A stretch of DNA of 64,000 nt from Amycolatopsis sp. EV170708-02-1. Lineage in GTDB: Bacteria > Actinomycetota > Actinomycetes > Mycobacteriales > Pseudonocardiaceae. The stretch covers positions 5,890,001-5,954,000 of the forward strand of contig NZ_CP092497.1 of the NCBI RefSeq assembly GCF_022479115.1, given 5' to 3'. The position numbers and the translations under genes were made by a program. The stretch's first letter is position 1, and each line of letters begins with the position of its first letter. This document shows, one piece after another, positions 2 to 60,704 of the stretch. A model generated the notes under the pieces. The model did no database searches. It worked only from the letters and a program-made list of their open reading frames with translations, and was not told the origin of the DNA.

Positions 2-322
2 CGCCTCGAACGGGACACGCGGGTGCCCATGTACCCGGTGCCGCAGACGTTCCGCGGAATGACCCACGGCATGACCGAACTCATGACGCTCACCCGCTCC
101 CGCTCATGGTCGCACCACGGCAACCCCGTGGCGGCCTTCTGCTTCGACTCGGCGGAAGTGCGCCATCCACCCGGAGAACCCGACCTCATCCGACCCGACA
201 AACCCCTACGCGGGAAGACCGGCAAGCGCATCGACGCGGTACCCACCGCCGCTATGGCGGTCTCGGGCTGGCGGTTACGTGGTCAGAAGCCGAAGAAGTC
301 TGGCGCGATGGTCGTAATGTGA
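2..322 (+). CDS. Phage terminase large subunit, C-terminal part (cut by window edge)
   Basis: The reading frame is open from the left edge and ends at 322, so only the last 106 codons are visible and the true start lies outside the window. The block GNPVAAFCFDSAEVR followed by KRIDAVPTAAMAVSGWR is typical of the nuclease-domain end of actinophage large terminases, the ATPase/nuclease that packages phage DNA. A truncated portal gene on the same strand follows at 919, the normal order in a phage packaging module, which supports the call. Two small minus-strand genes interrupt the module. I read the segment as the edge of a degraded prophage. Sequence left of the window is needed to know whether the ATPase domain survives. 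Confidence 0.75.
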   Translation, partial: RLERDTRVPMYPVPQTFRGMTHGMTELMTLTRSRSWSHHGNPVAAFCFDSAEVRHPPGEPDLIRPDKPLRGKTGKRIDAVPTAAMAVSGWRLRGQKPKKSGAMVVM

Positions 323-44298: not shown

Positions 44299-44931
44299 AT
44301 GGATGACCGGGAGGAGCCCGTGACGGTGAGCGGCGTCGTCGACGCGGCCTGGGAACGGATCACAACCTGGCTGCAGAGCCATACGCCGGTCACCGCGGCC
44401 ACCCTCCGGCCTCCGGCACCGGCCGACGACATCCACGCGGTGCAGGACACAGCGGGCCGGCCGTTCCCGGACGATCTGCTGGTGTGGTGGCGGCTGATGG
44501 ACGGTGTCGACGACGAGGCCGACTACCGCACCGCCTTCACCCTGCCTGGGGTGTACATGCCGCTGTCGGTCGCTCGCGTGCGGGAGGAGTGGGCCAGCCT
44601 CAGCGCCTACCCCGACCAGGACTGCTGCCGCCCCGACGGACACCACCGACGTGCCGCAGGCGACGCCACCTTCGGATACTGCACCGCGCTGCTGCCCGTC
44701 TGCCGCGCCGTCGATGGCGCCGTCCTCGCCCTCGACCTGCGCCCCGGCCCCGACCACGGCTGTGTGATGGACTGGATGGCGCAAGCAAGCGCCCACCACA
44801 CCAGCTGGACCAGCATCGGCGGCATGCTCACCGACACCGCCGAACGCCTCGACCGCCACACCACACCCACGACCCCACCGCGGCCAGGCGAGCCGACTGT
44901 CCGCGACGACGGAGCACTGACCTGGACGTGA
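44299..44931 (+). CDS. SMI1/KNR4 (SUKH) family protein
   Basis: The protein is about 210 residues. PADDIHAVQDTAGRPFPDDL followed by LVWWRLMDGVDDEAD is the SUKH signature, and GVYMPLSVARVREEWASL and FGYCTALLPVCRAVDG complete the domain. SUKH proteins are frequent immunity proteins against polymorphic toxins and also occur as intracellular adaptors. No toxin gene is adjacent, but the caspase-NACHT module lies directly downstream on the other strand. The ATG at 44299 is in frame; GTG codons at 44320 or 44326 sit after GGGAGGAG and may be the true start. Confidence 0.7.
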   Translation: MDDREEPVTVSGVVDAAWERITTWLQSHTPVTAATLRPPAPADDIHAVQDTAGRPFPDDLLVWWRLMDGVDDEADYRTAFTLPGVYMPLSVARVREEWASLSAYPDQDCCRPDGHHRRAAGDATFGYCTALLPVCRAVDGAVLALDLRPGPDHGCVMDWMAQASAHHTSWTSIGGMLTDTAERLDRHTTPTTPPRPGEPTVRDDGALTWT

Positions 44932-45003: not shown

Positions 45004-45837
45004 TCAGGCTTCCTCCGCCAGTGAGGCGATGGCGGCCGAGGTCACCGGGCTGGCGAGATAGTTCGTGACCTTGTGGAAGTCGAACAGGCCGATCTGGTCG
45101 GTGAGATCTGCGGCGATGCCGGTGAACCGCTCAGGCAGGCCATGCGGGACCGCGACGATGTCGCCGCTGTCGGCGACGTTGATCCATCTCCGCACACCCG
45201 GCGGCCGGCTCCCTTGTCCGTTGTCCGGCACAGGATCCAGCCTGTCGAAGATCACGTCGGGAAGACCTAGAGGAGAGCCGAGCGTGACGAGCAGCTCCAC
45301 GTCGAGGTCCGGCAGTCGCCACAGTGCCTCATAGGCGAGTACGGATCCGAGCGAGTGCCCGATCACCACCTTGGGCCGAGCGTCGGTGAGCAGCCCGGTG
45401 ACCCGTCCGCGGGCAGCGTCGCGGCGTTCCGGTTCCTCGAAGTAAGTGGATACCTCACGGCAGAACCGGCTCACGAAGATCCGCACCATTCGGGAGTCGA
45501 GCCCGAATTTCTGGGCGATCCAGCTCGCGGCTACGCGGGCTGGGGCGGTGAGACGACCTTGCGCGACCTCGGCCGGCGCGCCAAGCTGGCCCGCCCAGGC
45601 CAGCAGCAGTTCCCGCTCGGGTTCGGTCAGCGTCTCCAGATCATCCACCGCGCCCTGCGCAGTGCCTCGGTCGAGCCGGTCCGCGTAGTAGGCCACGCGA
45701 AGGTCGAGTCCGACGTTCCCACCCAGCCGCCGCCGCATCGCGGCGAGCCACCGTCTACTCACGAGAGCCGCGGCTTGGTCGGCTGTGAGACCCGATTCAT
45801 GGTTACCGATCCCATGCACACCAACGATCCGGGTCAT
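45004..45837 (-). CDS. Alpha/beta hydrolase coupled to the caspase-NACHT gene
   Basis: This 277-residue hydrolase has an oxyanion motif near the start (VGVHGIGNHESG), nucleophile Ser162 in VIGHSLGSVLAYEAL, probable acid D226 (SGDIVAVPHG) and probable base H255 (FDFHKVTNYL). There is no signal peptide or membrane segment. It is thus a cytosolic lipase or esterase-like enzyme. Its ATG overlaps the stop of the 1418-residue caspase-NACHT-WD40 gene by four bases, so the two are made together. Hydrolases of this type occur beside STAND ATPases in predicted bacterial conflict systems, where they are thought to damage lipids or to process another effector. Its exact role here is inference. Confidence 0.75.
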   Translation of the reverse strand: MTRIVGVHGIGNHESGLTADQAAALVSRRWLAAMRRRLGGNVGLDLRVAYYADRLDRGTAQGAVDDLETLTEPERELLLAWAGQLGAPAEVAQGRLTAPARVAASWIAQKFGLDSRMVRIFVSRFCREVSTYFEEPERRDAARGRVTGLLTDARPKVVIGHSLGSVLAYEALWRLPDLDVELLVTLGSPLGLPDVIFDRLDPVPDNGQGSRPPGVRRWINVADSGDIVAVPHGLPERFTGIAADLTDQIGLFDFHKVTNYLASPVTSAAIASLAEEA

Positions 45838-48800
45838 TCAGTCTCCCTGTGTTCCAGCATCACCACATCGTTGCCGCAGCTGACCACGAGCCGGCCATCG
45901 GCTGTACCCGCCACCGCGCCGACCCAGCCCGGAATCAGGATCTCGTCCAGTACCCGGTGTTCTCGCAGGTCGTATCGCGCGACGAAGCCGTGCATCACGT
46001 CCTGAGATCCCGGGACTCCGCCCAAGATCAGCGTCTCTCCGACGGAGGCGACGGGAATGCATGCCCAGCTGTCCGGCCAGTGCGTCGGCAGTCGTTCGCG
46101 GGTGGCCAGATCGAAAAGAAGCGCGCTGAATCTCGGGGACTCGCCGGAGGCCCACCGCGTCGTGATGGCCAGCACAGCTCGGCCTTGGACGTTAGTCATG
46201 GCCAGCCGGATCAGGTCCCAGTCCGATCGGCGCCCGGGCGTCGGTAACGGTACAGGGTCTGTAGCCGGATGGTTGAGATCCCAGACAAGCACTGTCTCCA
46301 TATCGGCGATCGCGACCAGGGAGCCACAGCAGACGACCGTGCCTGCGTTGTAACCCGGCACGGTGGTCGAGCCGATCACGACCTCGCTCTCCACATCGAG
46401 GATGCCCCAGCCTGTGCCGTCTGCGCGCTCGCCGATCACCACGGCGAGGGGCCGTCCACCGACCACAGTGGCCAGGACGACATCCTTCTTTCCCTGCGCC
46501 CACGGCGGTGTGCTCACGCGTCCATCTGCGAGGTACCGGATTGCGTGCCCGTCAAGAATCATGGGCACCTCGCCCATCAGTGTGGTCGTGGATCTCCGCC
46601 ACGCCATGGCCGATCGGATCGGCGGCCCGAACGGTGCACCGTCCGCCAGCCTCCAGGAGCGGACCTCGTAGTCGTCCCAGGTAACGACAAGTGGTTCCGG
46701 TGCTTCGTCGAGGATGTCGATCCGTCGGACGGGCTCGTCGTGCGCGCCTGAATGACGTGGCGTGGCCAGGTGCGCGGCCAGATCCCAGATGCGAATTCTC
46801 GTGCCGTCCACGGCGACCAGGCGGACGTCGCCGCCATCGGCCACCGTGGTCACGGCAGAGGGGAAAGCCCTTGCGAGCAGGCGCTGACCGACTGGTTTGC
46901 GTCGGGCGAGATCCCACAGTTGGATTCCTCCCGTCTCCAGACTGATCGCCGCGATAACCAGCTCACCCCAGTGGACGCAGTGGATGGCGGAGGCGTTTCC
47001 GACGCAGGGAACCGGGTCACCGACGCTGTCCCCTGTCACGAGATCAATCACGGCCAGAGTGCTCCCACCTACGATGACCAACACTGTGCGCTTGTCGAGC
47101 TCGGTGACGGCGAGGGTGAACTGCAGGTTCCCGTACCTGTCCGGCCGGCGTATCAGCTCGGCCAGCTCGCGGCCCGTGTCCGAGGAGCAGATCCAGATCG
47201 ACGACGAACCACCCAGTAGCGGCCCCTTTTTGCCGCTGACGATCAGCACATCCCGATCAGAGACGGTGGCACACGCAACCTCGCGGACGTTCAGATACAG
47301 TGGCGGCTCCAGCGGTTCGCCGGTGGCGAGGTCCAGGATTTGGGGTTGGTTCGTTCGTTTCCCCACGCGGATCGCGACCGTGCCGCCGGCCCAGGGGGCA
47401 CAGCTCAACCCGTGGTGTGGGAATCGCTTCGTCGGGTCGCCCCATCTACCCAGCCAACGCAGGGTCCGTAGATCCCACAAATCGACCGCATCGGTGTGAC
47501 CGGCGCTGACCACGATCTGCCGACCCGCCACCGTGGCACAGGCGATCTCCAGGCCGTAGGTCTCGGTGTCCACCTCGGCGATCTGCTTGTGCTCACGCAC
47601 GTCCCACAGCCGCAGCTTGCGGTCCGTGCTCGCGGTAACGACCACTGGATGGCCATCCAGCGTCGCACAATCAAGGCCGGTAATGATGCCTGTCTTCCCG
47701 ACACCACCGATCGTGGCAACTAAGGCAGGGTTGACCTGGCCATCCGTGGCCCAGCGCGGCACCCAGTCCAAGGCGGGCAGCCCGGCAGGGTTGGCCAGCC
47801 GGCGAGTCAAGTCGACGTGATGGTGCCTGGCGGCGTCGATGGCGAGGAGCTGGCGACGTTCTGCCGGGCTCACGCGGCGGTGCTGGTCAACCGAGGTGTG
47901 GTAGATCGCGGAGGCCCACCATCCAGCTCGGGATTGCGCTCGCGAAAGGTCGGGGCCGAGCCATTCTGGCTCAGCGTGGACGAGGAACTCGGCATCGTCG
48001 AGCAGTTCGTCCAGGCGGCCCGCATCGATCGCGTGTTGGCTGGCGTGCCGGAGCATGTAGGGCTCGGCCAGGTGCCATCGTCGACTCCGACCGGCTGGTG
48101 TGGACAGTGGCGGCAAGATTCGGTCCAGCAGCGCACCACGATCGGCTTCGGGGTGAAGGTGATCGGCGAGCGCTTGGTGGAAGAGCCGGTAGAGCGTGGT
48201 GCCGTCGTCGTCGGCCATGCTGCGCAGGTAGTACCGGCAGCGACGCAAGGTCTCGCGTACCTCGGCCTGGCTCGGCTCCGTGCCGTCGAGCAGGGCGGCG
48301 ACCGCGCGGGTCGCGACGTCGAGCGGCATCCCTTCGCCTCGCGCGCAGGCGAGCGTGACCATCAACGGCCGTCCGAGCGGTCCGACACGCGCCGGTGCCA
48401 GCTCGGCTTCGAACAGGTCGGGCAGCGTGAACGCCAGGTTCTTCACCAGCCAGGCGGTAATCGCATCGGGGTCGCGCGGCAGGCCCGACTTGAGCGCGTA
48501 GTGCGTGATCATACCCGCGCGCAGGAACCCGCCCCACGGTCCAGCTTCGGTGGTGACGAGCCGCTCGGCGACGGTGTCCGCGAACAGTTCCCGCAAGGGC
48601 CGGAACGCGACCTCACCGAACTCCGGTGAGAGTTCGAGCAGTTCGGTCAGGTAGGCGGCCAGATCACTGCGCAGCTGACCCGGGACCACAGCATCCAGGT
48701 CGATCACGAGCCCGCCTCGGTCCGCCGCCGTGCGCAGGTCGCCCAGCTCGGGCCACGGGCGCGTACCCACAAGTACCCGGGCGCGACCGCGCTCGGCCAG

Positions 48801-50090
48801 CGGCAGCACTAGGTCCCGCAGCACATTCTCCGGATCAATCGCTTCGTCCAGGGCGTCCAGCACAATCACCGGGCTCAGTCCCGGCCGATCGTCGAACTCG
48901 GAGCACAGTTTGGCCGGCGGCAGTGCGCCGATCCCGAGCTGTCGCCCGATTGAGGCGGCGATCTCGTCCACGTCGCACTGGCGGCCGTGCACCGCGACCA
49001 GGTTTCCGTTCGCGGATGGGCGATGGGCGACATGCCGCCACAGATCCATGGTCGACGACCGCAGAACCGGATGGGCCGCGCAGACAAGCACACCCAGCAG
49101 AGCCGACTTACCCGACCCCGGGCCACCCGCGACCATCGCCAGCGGGCTGTGTCCTCGGTCGAGCCAGTCCGACAGCGCGGCCAGTTCCTCGGCGCGACCG
49201 CTGAAGCAGCCGGCCCGGATCCGGCCTCGCAGTGGCCCCAGGCCCGAGGCACGATCGCGAAAGTGGTCGGCATCCAGCCGCACATCCACGAACGGCTCCA
49301 CCCGGACATCCACCGCGGACAGCGCCCGCCGGACCGGGTCGTCGTGGAAGTTCGGATTCGCGAAGAACGGCAGGTCCGGGTATTCACCGCTCACCGGTGT
49401 GGCCTGCACCCGCTGGCCGAACCCGGCCGCGCCGAGCCGCTCTACCTCGCGGCCGATCCGTGTGATCACCGTGCCCAGCGGCACGTGTCGCAGGTTCGGG
49501 TGCACGTCCAGCTCACCGCGTCGGATCGCTCCCAGCACCTCCACCACTGCCTGGCTGAAGTACCCGTTATAGGCGGGATCGCGGGGTCCGGTCGCCGCGA
49601 TCACCCAGGCACGGGCGGTCTCGGCGGCGACTTCCAACCGCCAGCCATGCCGGGTCGCCGAGCCCGAATAGCACAGATCCAGCAGGAACAGCGTCGGCGG
49701 ACGATCCGGGAAATCCTCGACCCACGACAGCCAGTTCTCCACCCTCGTGTCCAGGTCATGGACACCGTCAGCGCCGATCGCGTACAGACCCGATGGCAGT
49801 ACCTCGCCATGGCTGAGCAGGTGTACCACCAGCACGTCCTCCGGCCCGGCCGACGTGATCATCGATCGCAGCCGCCCGGCGAGCTCAGCGGCCCCCAGAA
49901 AATCAGCGTCCACGGTGAGACAGCGATATCCGTGCTCGGCCAATTCGGCACCCAGAGCCGACGATCGCTCGCCCGCGAAGGGCAACGCTGGCCAACGATC
50001 CAGCTCGGGCTCGCATTCAGGATCAGGCGGAGGTGAGAATGACTCGACGCCAAGGCAGAGTGCCTGCCGCTGTCCGGTCTCGCTCACCAC
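45834..50090 (-). CDS. Caspase-like peptidase - NACHT/STAND ATPase - WD40 protein
   Basis: The product is 1418 residues from GTG 50090, which has GGGGGAG seven bases upstream (a second GTG follows at 50087). Residues about 10-250 form a caspase-like C14 domain: His94 in VHLLSHGEV and Cys140 in LLDLCYSGS. Residues about 295-640 are a NACHT/STAND ATPase with Walker A GGPGSGKS (322-329) and Walker B VIVLDALDEA (about 409-417). A helical region follows (about 640-790). From about 796 to the end lie degenerate WD40 repeats (ASTDRKLRLWDV, GGIQLWDLARR, TRIRIWDLAAH, ETVLVWDLNH), probably one or two propellers. This is the NLR-like design: sensor, switch and protease effector. The alpha/beta hydrolase gene downstream is translationally coupled. 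Likely role: regulated suicide or anti-phage response; that is inference. Confidence 0.85.
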   Translation of the reverse strand: MVSETGQRQALCLGVESFSPPPDPECEPELDRWPALPFAGERSSALGAELAEHGYRCLTVDADFLGAAELAGRLRSMITSAGPEDVLVVHLLSHGEVLPSGLYAIGADGVHDLDTRVENWLSWVEDFPDRPPTLFLLDLCYSGSATRHGWRLEVAAETARAWVIAATGPRDPAYNGYFSQAVVEVLGAIRRGELDVHPNLRHVPLGTVITRIGREVERLGAAGFGQRVQATPVSGEYPDLPFFANPNFHDDPVRRALSAVDVRVEPFVDVRLDADHFRDRASGLGPLRGRIRAGCFSGRAEELAALSDWLDRGHSPLAMVAGGPGSGKSALLGVLVCAAHPVLRSSTMDLWRHVAHRPSANGNLVAVHGRQCDVDEIAASIGRQLGIGALPPAKLCSEFDDRPGLSPVIVLDALDEAIDPENVLRDLVLPLAERGRARVLVGTRPWPELGDLRTAADRGGLVIDLDAVVPGQLRSDLAAYLTELLELSPEFGEVAFRPLRELFADTVAERLVTTEAGPWGGFLRAGMITHYALKSGLPRDPDAITAWLVKNLAFTLPDLFEAELAPARVGPLGRPLMVTLACARGEGMPLDVATRAVAALLDGTEPSQAEVRETLRRCRYYLRSMADDDGTTLYRLFHQALADHLHPEADRGALLDRILPPLSTPAGRSRRWHLAEPYMLRHASQHAIDAGRLDELLDDAEFLVHAEPEWLGPDLSRAQSRAGWWASAIYHTSVDQHRRVSPAERRQLLAIDAARHHHVDLTRRLANPAGLPALDWVPRWATDGQVNPALVATIGGVGKTGIITGLDCATLDGHPVVVTASTDRKLRLWDVREHKQIAEVDTETYGLEIACATVAGRQIVVSAGHTDAVDLWDLRTLRWLGRWGDPTKRFPHHGLSCAPWAGGTVAIRVGKRTNQPQILDLATGEPLEPPLYLNVREVACATVSDRDVLIVSGKKGPLLGGSSSIWICSSDTGRELAELIRRPDRYGNLQFTLAVTELDKRTVLVIVGGSTLAVIDLVTGDSVGDPVPCVGNASAIHCVHWGELVIAAISLETGGIQLWDLARRKPVGQRLLARAFPSAVTTVADGGDVRLVAVDGTRIRIWDLAAHLATPRHSGAHDEPVRRIDILDEAPEPLVVTWDDYEVRSWRLADGAPFGPPIRSAMAWRRSTTTLMGEVPMILDGHAIRYLADGRVSTPPWAQGKKDVVLATVVGGRPLAVVIGERADGTGWGILDVESEVVIGSTTVPGYNAGTVVCCGSLVAIADMETVLVWDLNHPATDPVPLPTPGRRSDWDLIRLAMTNVQGRAVLAITTRWASGESPRFSALLFDLATRERLPTHWPDSWACIPVASVGETLILGGVPGSQDVMHGFVARYDLREHRVLDEILIPGWVGAVAGTADGRLVVSCGNDVVMLEHRETE

Positions 50091-50787
50091 GCCCCCACTC
50101 CCCCGCTCGTATCCGACCACGGTAGCGAATGCCCGCAGCCGGCAGGACCCGCCGAGCACCGCTATCGGGGCGCAGGTGGTGCTATCTCGGCCGGTGGGCA
50201 TAGGGCGTTCGAGACACCGAAGGAAACCACAGGCGCGGTCGTGTAAGAGACGGCTGAGGAGTTCGGCGGCTCGTGAGTTGCCCTCGCGGCCTCGACCAGC
50301 AGGTGGGTGTCGAGACGAGTTTGAGTTCTTCGGCTGGGCTAGAGGAGTGTGCTGTCCTGCGGCGCCGGTCATGCATCACGTACGTGGAGGGCGGCGTTCG
50401 ACGGGACACGCCCACACAGCCGAGCCCCATCGTCGGGAACTCTCTTGGCCGATCAGAAGTCGGCCAACCCAGCGAGAGACGACGAAGATCACGTGCCCCT
50501 CAAGCCACTCGCGAAAGGCCCGGTGGACGCCGAGGCAACTCATCACCACTGCGGGATCGCCCATTCGTGTCGACCTCGATGCGGCTACGTTGACACTCTC
50601 CAAGCCGAGGGTTCCTCTCGCTCCGCGAGGTGGACGCCGCACGGATCAGCAGGAGACGAGGTGTCAGGAGTGCGCAGGAGCCGTCGACGACGGGACAAGC
50701 TGCGGGCCCGCCTGGGCGCCCCAGGGACGACGACTGCTCCTGAACAGGTGCCGCTGGTGGTCGGACCACTTCGAGCAGTTCCCGATC
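50091..50787. other. Divergent control region, about 700 bp
   Basis: This lies between the caspase-NACHT gene and the unrecognised plus-strand gene. No separate gene is convincing. The plus frame of the next gene stays open far upstream, and a TTG at 50590 could extend it to include a CQECAG...C cysteine cluster. Promoters for both directions should lie here. Confidence 0.4.
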
Positions 50788-51762
50788 ATGGTGCTGCACA
50801 GGGCCTTGCTTGGCCGCGGCTGGGTATGGAACTGGCCAGCGGGGCAATTCCCGCCGCCGGGAATGCGCCCCGAAGACGAGTGGGTCCGCTACATCCCCAC
50901 GGACTGCGCGTGGCGCTTTCCCGAATCCGTGGAGGGCCCGGGAGAAGAGGACCCGGCGGCACTTCAGTGGATCGCCGAGGCGGGGATCAGCTGGGACGCC
51001 CACCACGACAGCGAGGCGGAGATCGGTGTACATCCCGCCTACGTCGACTGCTGCGGCGACCACGAACTCCGGACCTACCGCAGCATGGTGTACCCCCCGA
51101 CCCGGGACGGTGTCCAGGCGCTGCTGGCCGAGCTCGAGCAGATCGAGCGGCAGGTTCTCCGTCCCGCGGAGTTCGCCGCCTGCCCAGGGACGAGCACCGC
51201 GACGCCGCGGACCGATGACATCGACTCTGCAGTACTGGTCGCGCCAGACCTGCTACCCGCGGATGCCGCGGACACGCCCCTGGTGTTCCGGTGCGCGCCC
51301 GCAGTGCTGACTCAGCCGCATGTCCTCGGGATGTCGCGTCCTGACTGGGAGCTCGTCTTCGGCCGCATCGATCAAGTGCGACGCAACGCCACCGGCAGAG
51401 TTGATGGGCAGTTCGGGCCGCGGCAGAAGATGTCCTCGGCCGACATCGTCCTCGCGGCCGCGCTGTCACGCCGCTTCCAGACGCCGCTCACAGCGATCGC
51501 CGAGTTGTACGGTCTTGCATACGAGACAGTGGTGCGGCGAGTTCAGCGAGAGAAACCGTGGCTTGAGGCCGTCCTTCCGGACCGCGCGATTGCCCGCGCT
51601 GACGTGACGCTCCGTACGGCCTCCGCAGTCCGGAACCACTGGGGACTCGACCGGCCGGTCGTGCAATCAGTGGTGGCGACCGACGACAGCTTCCCGCCTA
51701 GCCACGACCGCCCGTACTCCGAAGTGCCGCCGACAATGCCGGGTCAGGTGCCGTCCGCCTGA
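50788..51762 (+). CDS. Unrecognised protein with a possible C-terminal HTH
   Basis: The product is 324 residues from the ATG at 50788. The in-frame TTG at 50590 would add 66 residues with a Cys-x2-Cys pair (CQECAG). The sequence is rich in Trp and acidic residues at the start (GRGWVWNWPAGQFPPPG, EDEWVRYIPTDCAWRFP). A later helical segment, IVLAAALSRRFQTPLTAIAE followed by LYGLAYETVVRRVQREKPWL, has the spacing of a helix-turn-helix. Codon use is strongly actinobacterial, so the frame is real. I do not recognise the family. It is divergent from the caspase-NACHT module and could be its regulator or a third component, but that is only position-based. Confidence 0.55.
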   Translation: MVLHRALLGRGWVWNWPAGQFPPPGMRPEDEWVRYIPTDCAWRFPESVEGPGEEDPAALQWIAEAGISWDAHHDSEAEIGVHPAYVDCCGDHELRTYRSMVYPPTRDGVQALLAELEQIERQVLRPAEFAACPGTSTATPRTDDIDSAVLVAPDLLPADAADTPLVFRCAPAVLTQPHVLGMSRPDWELVFGRIDQVRRNATGRVDGQFGPRQKMSSADIVLAAALSRRFQTPLTAIAELYGLAYETVVRRVQREKPWLEAVLPDRAIARADVTLRTASAVRNHWGLDRPVVQSVVATDDSFPPSHDRPYSEVPPTMPGQVPSA

Positions 51763-57797: not shown

Positions 57798-60704
57798 CTA
57801 TTCACCTGGCGCGCCGGCAATCCCGCGCAGCTCTGACGACGGCAGGCTGCCGAGTTCGGCATGCAAGGCGATCGCCTTTTCGGCGTGGTGCGCTGCATCA
57901 GCAGGTCTCTGAAGGTCGCGGTATACCTGGGCGAGCCCACCGCGTCCACGAGCTTCTTCATGTCGGAATCCGGTGTTTCTGGCGAGCGTGATGGCCTCCA
58001 GGTAATTGGAGATCGCCTCCTCCTGATAACCGAGGATTCGAGCCGTGCCCCCCAATCGGTTGAGCACCTCCACTTGGAGGCCGAGGTTGGCTCGTGCGCG
58101 CGCTATCACAAGCGCCTGACGATAGTTCTCAAACGCGTCTTGACATCGTCCGAGGCGTTCGTAGACCGTGGCCCGCGCGGACAGCAGCCAGTTGTCCAGC
58201 CCCGCTTCGGGAACGTCCCGTACGGCGTTCCCAGCCTGGTCAAGCGCTTCGAGCGCGGCTTCATAGTCACCGTTTTCCTCATGGTAGTAGGCAAGGTTAA
58301 GCAAGGCTGTGCCTTCTTCGGAGGGATGACCGGAACGCCGAGCCATATCCAGCGCATTCTCGATGTGGTGTAATTGCTCGTCGCTCCGACGGAGCTTGTC
58401 GGAAATCACTGCCAGCAGCATCGAGGCCGAGGTGCCCAGGACGAGGTCATCAGTCCTCGACGCGAAGTCGAGCACGCTCTGGCCGAGAGACTGGGCATGG
58501 GAATAGTCACCCAGGCGCACAAGTGCGTATGCGCGGTTCCACATGGTTCGATGGTAAGCACCCGGATCGTGTTCACGAACGGCTTCCATGGCGGCGGAAT
58601 GTAGTTCGAGAGCGTCGTGGTAGCGGCCCGAGTAGTCGAGATAGCGCATCAACGTACTCGACAGGTGGGCAGCGTGGTCTGGCATCCCACTTCTCGCTGT
58701 GTAAAGGCCGGCGGCGAGCAAGGTGGCGCATTCCCTGTCCAGCCATGCCCTGGCTGCGTCCTGATCCGGTAGCGCGGGGGCCGACTCGATCGGCTCAGGG
58801 ACCGGAGGCCGACGATATGGCTCCACCGGGTCGAGAAGGTCTGCCGCGATCGCGGCCGCGTAGCGATAATGGTCCATCAGGCGCAGCAGTCCCTCCTGAC
58901 GCTGGAGGTGGCTGGTCAGGCCTGAGGCGAGTTCAGTCGCGTACAGACGAACCAAGTCGTGCATGCGATAACGCCGTGGAGCGTGCTGCCGCACCACGTT
59001 CGCGGCCTCCAGCGCTCGCAGGTCTGATGCGGCCGAAACGACCGATCGATTGATGAGGGTTGCCACGGCGTCCGCGGTGAAGTCAGGTACGGGCGCGACC
59101 CCGAGCAGCGCGAACGTCCGTGCAGGGCCCCGGTCGAGTGCCCGGTAGGACGTGGCGAAAACCGCGCGCAGGCTGGCAGGAAGCTCGCCGAGGTCGAGAG
59201 CGTCCAAACGTCCGGCCTCGTCTCGGAGGTCGTGCGCGAGGGTTTCGAGCGGGAATTCGGGGTGCGCTGCCGCTCGGGCCGCCATGACGCTTAGCGCCAA
59301 TGGTAGTCCCGCGCATCGGCTGACCAGTTCGTCTGCGGCCTCTGATTCACGGCGCACGCGGTCATCGCCGATATGTCGTGTCAGCATCGTTCTCGCCGCG
59401 GCCGGAGGAAGGACATCCAGGATCAGCGTGTTGGCACCGTAGCCGGCTGTCAGGCCGCCGAGCCGATTCCGGCTCGTGATGAGCACAGCGACGCTGTCGG
59501 TTCCTGGCAGCAGCGGTATGACCTGGGCTGAGTCGCGTACGTCGTCAAGCAGCATCAGCACGCGCTTGTCAGCGAGTTGACTGCGATACAGGGCTGCGAG
59601 CGCGTCGAGGTCGCTGGGGATCGCTGATGCCGCCACGCCGAGGTCTCTGAGCACCCGTCGCAAGCAGGCCTGCGGTTCCAGCGGTTCACCAGCAGGGTCA
59701 AAGCCGCGCAGGTTCAGATAGAGTTGCCCGTCGGGGAACTCATCTGCGTGCTCGTGTGCCCAAAGTAGCGACAACGCGGTTTTGCCGATGCCTCCGACGC
59801 CGGTCACGATCGTGATCGGGGGCCCGTCTCCCCTGCCGGTGGCCGGTGAGAGAACCTTGGTCAGAACGGCGAGGTCCTGTTCTCTCCCGGTCAAGACGAG
59901 GCGGCGTGCCGGGAGCTGTCGCGGAACTATCGAGTGTGCCGATCCCGGATCTTTCTCTGGCGCGTTCAGCGTGGGGTCGAGGTTCAATATGCGCCTGTGC
60001 AGATCTTGGAGAGCCACGCCGGGGTCAGCGCCGAGTTCTTCCGCAAGCCGCAGGCGTAGCGTCTCGTACCGCGCGAGCGCGTCAGCCTGCCGCCCAGTTC
60101 TGTAGAGGGCGAGCATGATCAGTTCGGCAAGGCCCTCATGCAACGGATACTGCCCGGTCAACCTGCTGAGTTCGGGCAGAACGTCGGCATGTTCACCGTG
60201 ACGCAGACGCCAGGAGATCAACAGCCGGTAGGCGGCAAGCACGCGTTCTTCGCACGGCCACACGAACTCCCGCAGCGCTGCTTCACCATCGACGTCGCCG
60301 AACGCCCGGCCACGTCGGAGCGAAAGTGCCTGATCGAGCATCGCCACGACGTCGTGTCCGGCACCTCGACGATCGGCCTCTCGAGCTTTCGTGAACAAGT
60401 CGTCGAACTCCGCCAAGTCCAATTCGATCGCGTCGGCGACGAATTGGTATCCGCCGATGTCGGTGCGAATCCGTTCGTCTCCGAGGATGTCCCGCAATCG
60501 CCGAACGTAGGTCTGGATGGCCGCCTTCGGGTTCGCGGGTTCACCGTCGTCCCACAGCCAGCGTGCCAGCGTGGCTGTCGGCACCGTCTCATCCGCCCGC
60601 GAAATCAGCCCACAGAGCAACGTCCGTAGCTTTCCAGCGGGCACGGGCACCTCATGCCGGCCCTCCCAGACCCGCAGGACCCCCAGCACCGCAAATTCCG
60701 CCAC
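57798..60704 (-). CDS. AfsR-like regulator: SARP DNA-binding/BTAD, NB-ARC ATPase, TPR
   Basis: The product is 968 residues from a GTG. Residues about 1-95 form the OmpR-like SARP DNA-binding domain (FAVLGVLRVWEG, AIQTYVRRLRDIL). Residues 96-245 are the bacterial transcriptional activation domain (ELDLAEFDDLF, LPELSRLTGQYPLHEGL). The NB-ARC ATPase has Walker A GVGGIGKT (302-309) and LMLLDD (383-388). The rest is a TPR array (GDYSHAQSLGQSVLDFAS, GDYEAALEALDQAG, GYQEEAISNYLEAI). AfsR-type proteins activate secondary metabolism or development and are often phosphorylated by Ser/Thr kinases; a kinase gene lies at 61546, on the other strand. No biosynthetic cluster is visible in the window. Confidence 0.85.
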   Translation of the reverse strand: MAEFAVLGVLRVWEGRHEVPVPAGKLRTLLCGLISRADETVPTATLARWLWDDGEPANPKAAIQTYVRRLRDILGDERIRTDIGGYQFVADAIELDLAEFDDLFTKAREADRRGAGHDVVAMLDQALSLRRGRAFGDVDGEAALREFVWPCEERVLAAYRLLISWRLRHGEHADVLPELSRLTGQYPLHEGLAELIMLALYRTGRQADALARYETLRLRLAEELGADPGVALQDLHRRILNLDPTLNAPEKDPGSAHSIVPRQLPARRLVLTGREQDLAVLTKVLSPATGRGDGPPITIVTGVGGIGKTALSLLWAHEHADEFPDGQLYLNLRGFDPAGEPLEPQACLRRVLRDLGVAASAIPSDLDALAALYRSQLADKRVLMLLDDVRDSAQVIPLLPGTDSVAVLITSRNRLGGLTAGYGANTLILDVLPPAAARTMLTRHIGDDRVRRESEAADELVSRCAGLPLALSVMAARAAAHPEFPLETLAHDLRDEAGRLDALDLGELPASLRAVFATSYRALDRGPARTFALLGVAPVPDFTADAVATLINRSVVSAASDLRALEAANVVRQHAPRRYRMHDLVRLYATELASGLTSHLQRQEGLLRLMDHYRYAAAIAADLLDPVEPYRRPPVPEPIESAPALPDQDAARAWLDRECATLLAAGLYTARSGMPDHAAHLSSTLMRYLDYSGRYHDALELHSAAMEAVREHDPGAYHRTMWNRAYALVRLGDYSHAQSLGQSVLDFASRTDDLVLGTSASMLLAVISDKLRRSDEQLHHIENALDMARRSGHPSEEGTALLNLAYYHEENGDYEAALEALDQAGNAVRDVPEAGLDNWLLSARATVYERLGRCQDAFENYRQALVIARARANLGLQVEVLNRLGGTARILGYQEEAISNYLEAITLARNTGFRHEEARGRGGLAQVYRDLQRPADAAHHAEKAIALHAELGSLPSSELRGIAGAPGE

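What the first reader, a model, noticed from the sequence alone, without database searches (positions are those of the whole stretch)
45004..50090. NLR-like caspase-NACHT-WD40 protein coupled to an alpha/beta hydrolase
Seen: one 1418-residue protein with a caspase dyad (His94, Cys140), a NACHT/STAND P-loop and Walker B, and a long WD40 tail. Its stop codon overlaps the start of an alpha/beta hydrolase with an apparently intact Ser-Asp-His triad. Known: STAND ATPases with effector and sensor domains act as bacterial NLR-like defence proteins, and bacterial caspases can act as death effectors. Inferred: a two-effector (protease plus lipase/esterase) conflict system in which WD40 sensing triggers the ATPase. 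The hydrolase could be the protease's substrate, a second effector or a proenzyme activated by it.
Basis: partly seen in the sequence, partly recalled or inferred. Interest (0 to 1): 0.85.

Follow-up and report, generated by a model that had tools for sequence, protein, structure and literature searches.

The report
One-chain bacterial apoptosome with hydrolase partner
An actinobacterium carries two overlapping genes, one joining a caspase-like protease to an apoptosis-type switch and a repeat tail, the other a lipase-like enzyme, and this pair is kept together across many bacteria, where it would likely act as a triggered defence or cell-suicide device.

Summary
In detail: a 1418-aa caspase–STAND–WD40 protein (45834-50090, minus strand) overlaps by 4 bp an alpha/beta-hydrolase gene (45004-45837). 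Caspase His/Cys and hydrolase Ser/Asp/His are invariant in the homologues aligned (67 and 76 rows). The pair is a real unit: the hydrolase lies at 62 of 78 related loci (the best-scoring 80 of 183 were kept), and 28 of 39 downstream same-strand pairs overlap. In 219 Streptomyces genomes it is within 8 kb of 29 of 37 caspase-STANDs but 0 of 11 trypsin-STANDs. Caspase + hydrolase pairs without a P-loop occur in Rhizobium and Leptolyngbya, so the hydrolase follows the caspase. Both ideas are known separately: metacaspase-NACHT-WD40 (2012) and caspase + hydrolase pairing inside VMAP ternary systems (Kaur 2020). Here MoxR and vWA genes are over 500 kb away: an autonomous two-gene variant. New details: eight loci split the NLR-like protein at one fixed point, one with the hydrolase gene between the halves, one with two tandem sensor halves; and a conserved linker Arg is a candidate self-cleavage site. 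No conserved cleavage site was found in the hydrolase and no defence-island enrichment. Anti-phage or suicide function is inference.

The parts
45834..50090 (-). caspase-STAND-WD40 protein (1418 aa, GTG start; stop codon TGA 45834-45836 overlaps the next gene's start)
49350..50069 (-). caspase-fold protease domain, residues 8-247
49809..49811 (-). catalytic His94 codon
49671..49679 (-). Asp138-x-Cys140: catalytic Cys and, two residues before it, an invariant Asp that (recalled from MALT1/metacaspases) predicts an Arg/Lys P1 preference
   Evidence: Asp138 and Cys140 in 67 of 67 rows and in 117 of 120 with 3 gapped; specificity is inference
49206..49349 (-). caspase-STAND linker, residues 248-295; residues 271-292 predicted disordered yet holding HFxxRAxG (residues 276-283)
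   Evidence: pLDDT <50 at 271-292; R/K280 in 61 of 67, R/K280 followed by A/S/G in 56 of 67
49251..49253 (-). Arg280, candidate self-cleavage site (inferred)
   Evidence: only position before the FxGR motif with K/R in at least 85% of 67 rows
47766..49205 (-). STAND NTPase core with winged-helix and helical region, residues 296-775
   Evidence: Foldseek top hit full-length Apaf-1, E 1e-9; Walker A 49104-49127, Walker B 48843-48869; P-loop Gly/Lys and Asp412/Asp415/Glu416 invariant in 67 rows
48138..48149 (-). point matching residues about 648-651 where eight other loci split the protein into two genes (window copy is unsplit)
45837..47765 (-). WD40-type tail, residues 776-1418, fastest-evolving part
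   Evidence: identity to P0123 56% against 73-79% for caspase and STAND, to P0124 25% against 53-64%
45004..45837 (-). alpha/beta-hydrolase, 277 aa, start codon overlapping the caspase gene's stop
   Evidence: AF2 pLDDT 94
45352..45354 (-). hydrolase nucleophile Ser162 (GHSLG)
   Evidence: 76 of 76 rows
45160..45162 (-). hydrolase acid Asp226 (assigned by conservation)
   Evidence: 76 of 76 rows
45073..45075 (-). hydrolase base His255
   Evidence: 76 of 76 rows

Best explanation
The two genes form one translationally coupled module, kept together across actinobacteria, in which a single chain laid out like a fused apoptosome (caspase, Apaf-1-like STAND switch, WD40 tail) is predicted to sense a trigger, oligomerise and switch on its caspase, which would then act with the separate serine hydrolase, likely a lipase/esterase-type second effector. 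Shown here: architecture, conserved active-site residues, overlapping genes, conserved linkage, linkage to the caspase type rather than the trypsin type of the same STAND family, and co-variation. Inferred: the WD40 tail as sensor, ATP-driven assembly (by analogy with Apaf-1), Arg-specific cleavage, self-cleavage at Arg280 in the disordered linker, and killing or arrest of the cell as outcome. How the hydrolase is engaged is open. I favour direct partnership with the caspase domain (complex or cleavage) because the hydrolase stays with caspases even where no P-loop or WD40 part is seen.
For: Hydrolase at 62 of 78 caspase-STAND loci; 10 of the 16 misses have at least 5.5 kb of downstream sequence, and 9 of those 10 are in organisms with another listed locus that has it (titles). 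28 of 39 downstream same-strand pairs overlap, 24 of them by 4 bp. In 219 Streptomyces genomes: 29 of 37 caspase-STAND places have it within 8 kb, 0 of 11 trypsin-STAND places (Fisher p 3e-6). Hydrolase distances track caspase (Mantel r 0.70) and STAND (0.72) nearly as well as these track each other (0.76) over 61 loci. In L020 the hydrolase gene lies between the two halves of a split NLR-like protein with 4-bp overlaps on both sides. Pairs without a P-loop motif: Rhizobium caspase + hydrolase (L199; Pfam caspase 20.6 of 21.4 bits, record name 'caspase family protein'), Leptolyngbya 2216-aa caspase protein overlapping the hydrolase (L200). Apaf-1 is the top fold match.
Against: No assay exists. 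Ten loci with room lack the hydrolase, and so do 8 of 37 caspase-STAND places in Streptomyces. A solo hydrolase clade (10 loci) without caspase keeps the triad, so the enzyme can work without a caspase. The hydrolase model is well folded (no stretch under pLDDT 50) and I found no flexible-loop Arg/Lys conserved in all caspase-linked forms, against a proenzyme. The linker control was not clean: the loose pattern R[AGS]xG is missing from 6 of 25 and 3 of 6 readable linkers of other caspase-STANDs and occurs in 3 of 5 readable non-protease STANDs. Co-variation does not separate caspase from STAND as the partner and was not corrected for species relatedness. No defence-island signal.
Confidence: 0.5

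Rival explanations
1. The hydrolase is a proenzyme or substrate cut by the caspase, as pro-nucleases are cut by partner proteases in Hachiman, AVAST and canu systems.
For: Close analogy reported by Tuck et al. 2025 (passages read), who expect further proteolytically activated enzyme classes; tight linkage to the caspase. In caspase-STAND-linked hydrolases two lower-confidence cap loops carry conserved Gln61 (92%) and Gln93 (89%), followed by Arg101 (93%).
Against: I found no site conserved through all caspase-linked forms: Arg101 is Glu in L085/L090 and mixed in the 12 other-caspase hydrolases; Arg211 is followed by Pro; solo relatives without caspase keep the triad; the model has no disordered active-site plug.
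Confidence: 0.25
2. The hydrolase is a brake or resetting enzyme (regulator or antitoxin-like partner) of the caspase rather than an effector.
For: Same linkage data; gene order and strand vary (40 downstream and 10 upstream on the same strand, 12 on the opposite strand, of 62), as also seen for regulators.
Against: Ten loci with room lack it (9 in organisms holding it elsewhere, so only weakly against); catalytic residues are invariant, so an enzymatic role is needed.
Confidence: 0.15
3. A regulatory or developmental NLR-like protein of actinobacteria, not a conflict system.
For: No defence-island enrichment; no PADLOC model; the solo hydrolase clade sits in a conserved chromosomal neighbourhood.
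Against: Patchy distribution (caspase type in 8, trypsin type in 2, of 296 class genomes); fast WD40 tail; a plasmid copy beside Tn3 transposase and recombinases; duplicated diverging sensor halves.
Confidence: 0.1

Closest known systems
Caspase + alpha/beta-hydrolase pairs of VMAP (MoxR-vWA) ternary systems, Kaur et al. 2020 (PMC7159879, passages read)
   Same: A caspase fused to the VMAP component is reported always neighboured by an alpha/beta-hydrolase gene; trypsin versions frequently pair with Trypco instead.
   Different: Here the caspase is fused to its own STAND-WD40 chain; no MoxR or vWA match within 500 kb in the genome. I did not search for the VMAP domain itself nor fetch a VMAP-associated hydrolase, so homology to that one is untested.
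Metacaspase-NACHT-WD40 proteins, Asplund-Samuelsson et al. 2012 (PMC3501461, passages read)
   Same: Same domain order, called widely distributed.
   Different: No alpha/beta-hydrolase partner in the passages read.
Protease-nuclease pairs and canu, Tuck et al. 2025 (PMC12799240, passages read)
   Same: Protease linked to a sensing system plus a separately encoded hydrolytic partner; MALT1-like caspase.
   Different: Partner there is an MBL-fold nuclease with gating insertions; here a serine alpha/beta-hydrolase without a disordered plug.
Avs / bNACHT antiviral STAND proteins (recalled; named in passages)
   Same: N-terminal effector, STAND core, C-terminal repeat sensor.
   Different: Caspase effector with a second enzyme gene; no PADLOC Avs match.
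Apaf-1 apoptosome
   Same: STAND core and WD40 tail; top fold match of the caspase-STAND model.
   Different: Apaf-1 recruits caspase-9 by CARD (recalled); here the caspase is in the same chain.

Membership tests
NLR-like STAND protein | N-terminal effector, central STAND NTPase with Walker A/B, C-terminal repeat tail | tested here: met
NLR-like STAND protein | experimentally shown antiviral activity | not testable with these tools
   none
Known PADLOC defence system (Avs and others) | match to a PADLOC model | tested here: not met
   one match at E 0.063 (mad8 P-loop)
Caspase superfamily (C14) | His-Cys dyad in caspase fold | tested here: met
Caspase superfamily (C14) | Pfam PF00656 over cut-off | tested here: not met
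   (25 of 27 families shown, PF00656 not among them); one search finds three other PF00656 proteins in this genome, not this one
VMAP ternary system | MoxR AAA+ and vWA genes in the neighbourhood | tested here: not met
   nearest MoxR (PF07726) 0.7 Mb away, nearest vWA (PF00092) 0.54 Mb away
VMAP ternary system | VMAP component | not tested
   no VMAP profile was run
VMAP ternary system | caspase neighboured by an alpha/beta-hydrolase gene | tested here: met
EACC1 two-gene system | EACC1-type caspase (NF047832) over cut-off | tested here: not met
   16.6 of 140 bits; up to 34 bits in 3 of 6 relatives scanned, none in the other 3
EACC1 two-gene system | 5' gene for EACC1 single-TM protein | tested here: inconclusive
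   ORFs 50500-51063 and 50349-51218 hit no NCBIfam family and 50500-51063 no Pfam family; I did not check that an EACC1 model exists in these libraries
canu / protease-nuclease pair | MBL-fold nuclease partner | tested here: not met
   partner is an alpha/beta-hydrolase
canu / protease-nuclease pair | disordered gating insertion at the partner's active site | tested here: not met
   no segment under pLDDT 50
alpha/beta-hydrolase, lipase/esterase type | HG oxyanion motif, GxSxG, Ser-Asp-His | tested here: met
alpha/beta-hydrolase, DDHD (Nir2-like) branch | closest fold | tested here: inconclusive
alpha/beta-hydrolase, lipase/esterase type | lipase or esterase activity | not testable with these tools
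   none

The most novel reading that the evidence does not exclude
A one-chain bacterial apoptosome whose Arg-specific caspase, once assembled, frees itself at Arg280 and turns on a partner serine lipase: a caspase-activated lipase death pathway, beside protease-activated gasdermins and nucleases. Its sensor half can be split off and multiplied as separate subunits, so that one caspase-switch serves several WD40 sensors.
Probability: 0.22. Interest if true: 0.82.

Novelty: new variant of a known kind. Interest (0 to 1): 0.55.

Why it matters
It shows that the caspase + alpha/beta-hydrolase partnership described inside large ternary systems also occurs as an autonomous two-gene NLR-like unit, and that the hydrolase follows the caspase and not the STAND or WD40 parts. 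That makes one question directly testable with two genes and two point mutants: do bacterial caspases execute through a lipase-like partner? The naturally split versions give a ready-made way to separate switch from sensor.

Tried and rejected
(1) Cleavage site in the hydrolase: columns compared between 61 caspase-STAND-linked, 12 other-caspase and 10 solo hydrolases. Candidates Gln93 and Arg101 are lost in all 10 solo rows and Gln61 in 9 of 10; the solo clade lies inside the linked clade on the tree (support 98/74 and 85/90). As a control I counted such losses in ten other subclades (one nested in another): 0 to 6 positions lost in all members, against 5 in the solo clade. So the losses are not special; no claim made. 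(2) Linker self-cleavage site: Arg280 kept as candidate only, because the loose-pattern control failed to separate and window 273-283 ranks only 127th of 749 for conservation. (3) Defence island: 140 neighbour genes (of 504 eligible from 58 loci, random) against 139 control genes, PADLOC E up to 1e-10: 47 families (25 shown) against 15, but almost all matched by a single gene, many being models of the same Septu proteins; commonest family 2 members against 3. Inconclusive. (4) Co-variation could not tell caspase from STAND as partner. (5) Hydrolase in phage records: no match; plasmids: 49 records. (6) Literature: eight searches. Among the titles and abstracts listed (searches list 20 of 27, 46 and 55 papers) I saw none on a caspase-STAND-WD40 + alpha/beta-hydrolase two-gene system; only an open-licence PMC library was searched. 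(7) A Pfam search for PF00656 missed the window's caspase. (8) Limits of counts: one search kept the best 80 of 183 loci, so its sample leans to close relatives; only a few first-look candidates per genome (at most 3, 8, 5 and 11 beyond the own genome) were scored, so misses are possible.

Full report

Is the pair a unit? One scan of GTDB contigs gave 78 distinct loci (best 80 of 183 confirmed, so a sample leaning to close relatives; all titles actinobacterial). A profile of the hydrolase finds it in the fetched stretch (up to 9 kb each side) of 62 of 78: 40 downstream and 10 upstream on the same strand, 7 downstream and 5 upstream on the opposite strand. Of 16 misses, 6 have less than 1.4 kb left after the STAND part. 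Of the other 10, nine are from organisms (Allorhizocola, Actinomadura craniellae, Actinomadura sp. HBU206391, Actinoplanes sp. DH11, Spongiactinospora, Acrocarpospora) that have another listed locus with the hydrolase; Sinosporangium (L073) is the exception (titles). Of 39 downstream same-strand pairs measured, 28 overlap, 24 of them by 4 bp; of 10 upstream pairs 3 overlap by 4 bp and one by 17. In 296 genomes drawn from the class, 10 gave a STAND match: 8 have a caspase-type N-terminus and 2 (G095, G101) a trypsin-like one (by eye for some). The hydrolase is adjacent in 7 of the 8 (the window's own included; not G111) and in neither of the 2. Conversely, of 41 hydrolase places in these genomes I examined 39: 15 are beside a caspase, 10 belong to a solo clade, 14 have no caspase that I called (mostly weak hits).

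What does the hydrolase follow? In 219 Streptomyces genomes I searched for the STAND family with a trypsin-STAND query (56 places) and for the hydrolase. Eleven places have a trypsin-like N-terminus; none has the hydrolase within 8 kb (two lie at contig ends; one, G428, has a hydrolase 11 kb off that overlaps a second STAND gene). Of the other 45, 37 have a caspase motif (three called by eye), and 29 of these have the hydrolase; one place is unresolved and 7 show no caspase motif. Of the 8 caspase-STANDs without it, none shows the hydrolase in an 18-kb stretch. Fisher p is 3e-6 for 29 of 37 against 0 of 11. Outside this family relatives of the hydrolase sit beside caspases that show no P-loop motif: a 641-aa protein in Rhizobium ruizarguesonis (2 bp apart; Pfam caspase 20.6 bits, just under the cut-off of 21.4, named a caspase in the record) and a 2216-aa caspase protein in Leptolyngbya boryana (4-bp overlap). 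A Sinorhizobium meliloti pair (L201) keeps an HG motif and a DxC motif but has no Pfam match. In the window's own genome a second locus has a hydrolase divergent from a caspase protein (over the PF00656 cut-off) with FHA- and TPR-like parts by eye (L007). So the constant partner is the caspase.

Co-variation. Over 61 loci hydrolase distances correlate with caspase (Mantel r 0.70) and STAND (0.72) distances almost as well as caspase with STAND (0.76), none reached in 999 permutations; partial correlations are 0.35 and 0.39, so they do not single out one domain, and shared ancestry of the species is not removed.

Split versions. In eight loci (L020, L086, L100, L105, L106, L110, L111, L112; L021 shows the same arrangement as L100 on a contig of the same length) the NLR-like protein is two ORFs in different frames. 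In all eight the first half's profile match ends at STAND-profile position 402-405 and the second half's begins at 403-406 (397 in L105), window residues about 648-651. In seven the second start overlaps the first stop by 4 bp. In the eighth, L020, the order is caspase-NTPase, hydrolase, helical-WD40, with 4-bp overlaps at both junctions. In L106 two helical-WD40 genes, 55% identical and more alike at the N-terminus, lie in tandem before the hydrolase, every junction a 4-bp overlap. Such a repeated split point with start codons is not what sequencing errors give. It puts the hydrolase inside the operon as an equal member and suggests that the sensor half is exchangeable. L102 also has the protein in two ORFs but elsewhere and without a start at the junction; it is not counted.

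Mechanism. WD40 tails diverge fastest (56% against 73-79% for P0123; 25% against 53-64% for P0124), as expected of a sensor. Asp at Cys-2 is invariant; from recalled MALT1 and metacaspase structures this predicts cleavage after Arg/Lys. The linker between caspase and STAND (271-292, pLDDT under 50) holds the only K/R-conserved position before the STAND FxGR motif: Arg280 (R or K in 61 of 67; with A/S/G next in 56 of 67). It is a candidate self-cleavage site. Trypsin-STANDs have an Arg-rich motif at the same place (8 of 8 read), but the loose pattern is missing from 6 of 25 and 3 of 6 readable linkers of other caspase-STANDs with and without hydrolase, and occurs in 3 of 5 readable non-protease STANDs; it may be a STAND element. 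In the hydrolase I found no site conserved through all caspase-linked forms. Two cap loops carry conserved Gln61 and Gln93, and Arg101 follows, but another caspase-linked subclade loses Arg101 and the control removes any special meaning of their loss in the solo clade. I therefore favour a caspase-coupled co-effector, likely lipase/esterase, with substrate and brake as rivals.

Defence? Not shown. Neighbour genes are not clearly richer in PADLOC families than control neighbours. Pointers: patchy distribution, a plasmid copy beside a Tn3 transposase and recombinases (L197; 49 plasmid records with some relative of the hydrolase), diversified tails.

Known and new. Kaur et al. 2020 state that caspase-bearing VMAPs always have an alpha/beta-hydrolase neighbour while trypsin ones frequently pair with Trypco (passages). 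Asplund-Samuelsson et al. 2012 call metacaspase-NACHT-WD40 widely distributed (passages). Tuck et al. 2025 show protease-activated nucleases, including a caspase one, and expect more enzyme classes (passages). New here, as far as my searches reach: the autonomous STAND-WD40 + hydrolase two-gene form with its numbers, the caspase-not-trypsin contrast inside one STAND family, the split forms, and the linker candidate. MoxR and vWA genes are more than 500 kb away in this genome.

Noticed in passing
L020, L086, L100, L105, L106, L110, L111, L112 (coordinates): The caspase-STAND-WD40 protein is naturally split into two genes at one fixed point; L020 has the hydrolase gene between the halves and L106 has two tandem sensor halves.
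   Followed up: partly
L007 4758-8486 (own genome, 0.69 Mb): Second caspase/hydrolase pair in the same genome, divergent: hydrolase opposite a caspase protein with FHA- and TPR-like parts (by eye).
   Followed up: partly
P0144, P0152, P0156, P0155, P0177, P0220, P0153: Caspase-STAND homologues carry extra modules after or before the core: DnaJ cysteine-rich/C-terminal domains, Hsp70, PP2C phosphatase, Ser/Thr kinase, Clp N domain. Chaperone parts on a caspase-NLR are odd.
   Followed up: no
L052 1029-15137 (Actinoplanes sp. DH11): Four tandem caspase-STAND genes without a hydrolase in the fetched stretch; the same contig has one with it (L066).
   Followed up: no
L029-L037, L135: A solo clade of the hydrolase, nested among caspase-linked ones, in a conserved neighbourhood (peptidyl-tRNA-hydrolase-like, HAD-like, MFS-like genes by eye) without caspase: possible release from the pair.
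   Followed up: partly
L198 1000-5664 (Streptomyces canus plasmid): Next to the caspase-STAND/hydrolase pair lies a CHAT-domain protein divergent from an alpha/beta-hydrolase (DUF900) without clear similarity to ours: perhaps a second, independent caspase-superfamily/hydrolase pairing.
   Followed up: partly
window 44299-44931 +: SUKH-1 (SMI1/KNR4) protein converging on the hydrolase gene; this family holds immunity proteins of toxin systems (recalled).
   Followed up: no
window 57798-60704 -: Ordinary SARP-type regulator (BTAD, NB-ARC, TPR), a second STAND protein in the window unrelated to the finding.
   Followed up: no
L199 7721-9420 (Rhizobium plasmid): Downstream of a caspase/hydrolase pair: C1-family peptidase overlapping the gene of an I42-type protease inhibitor (record annotation).
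   Followed up: no
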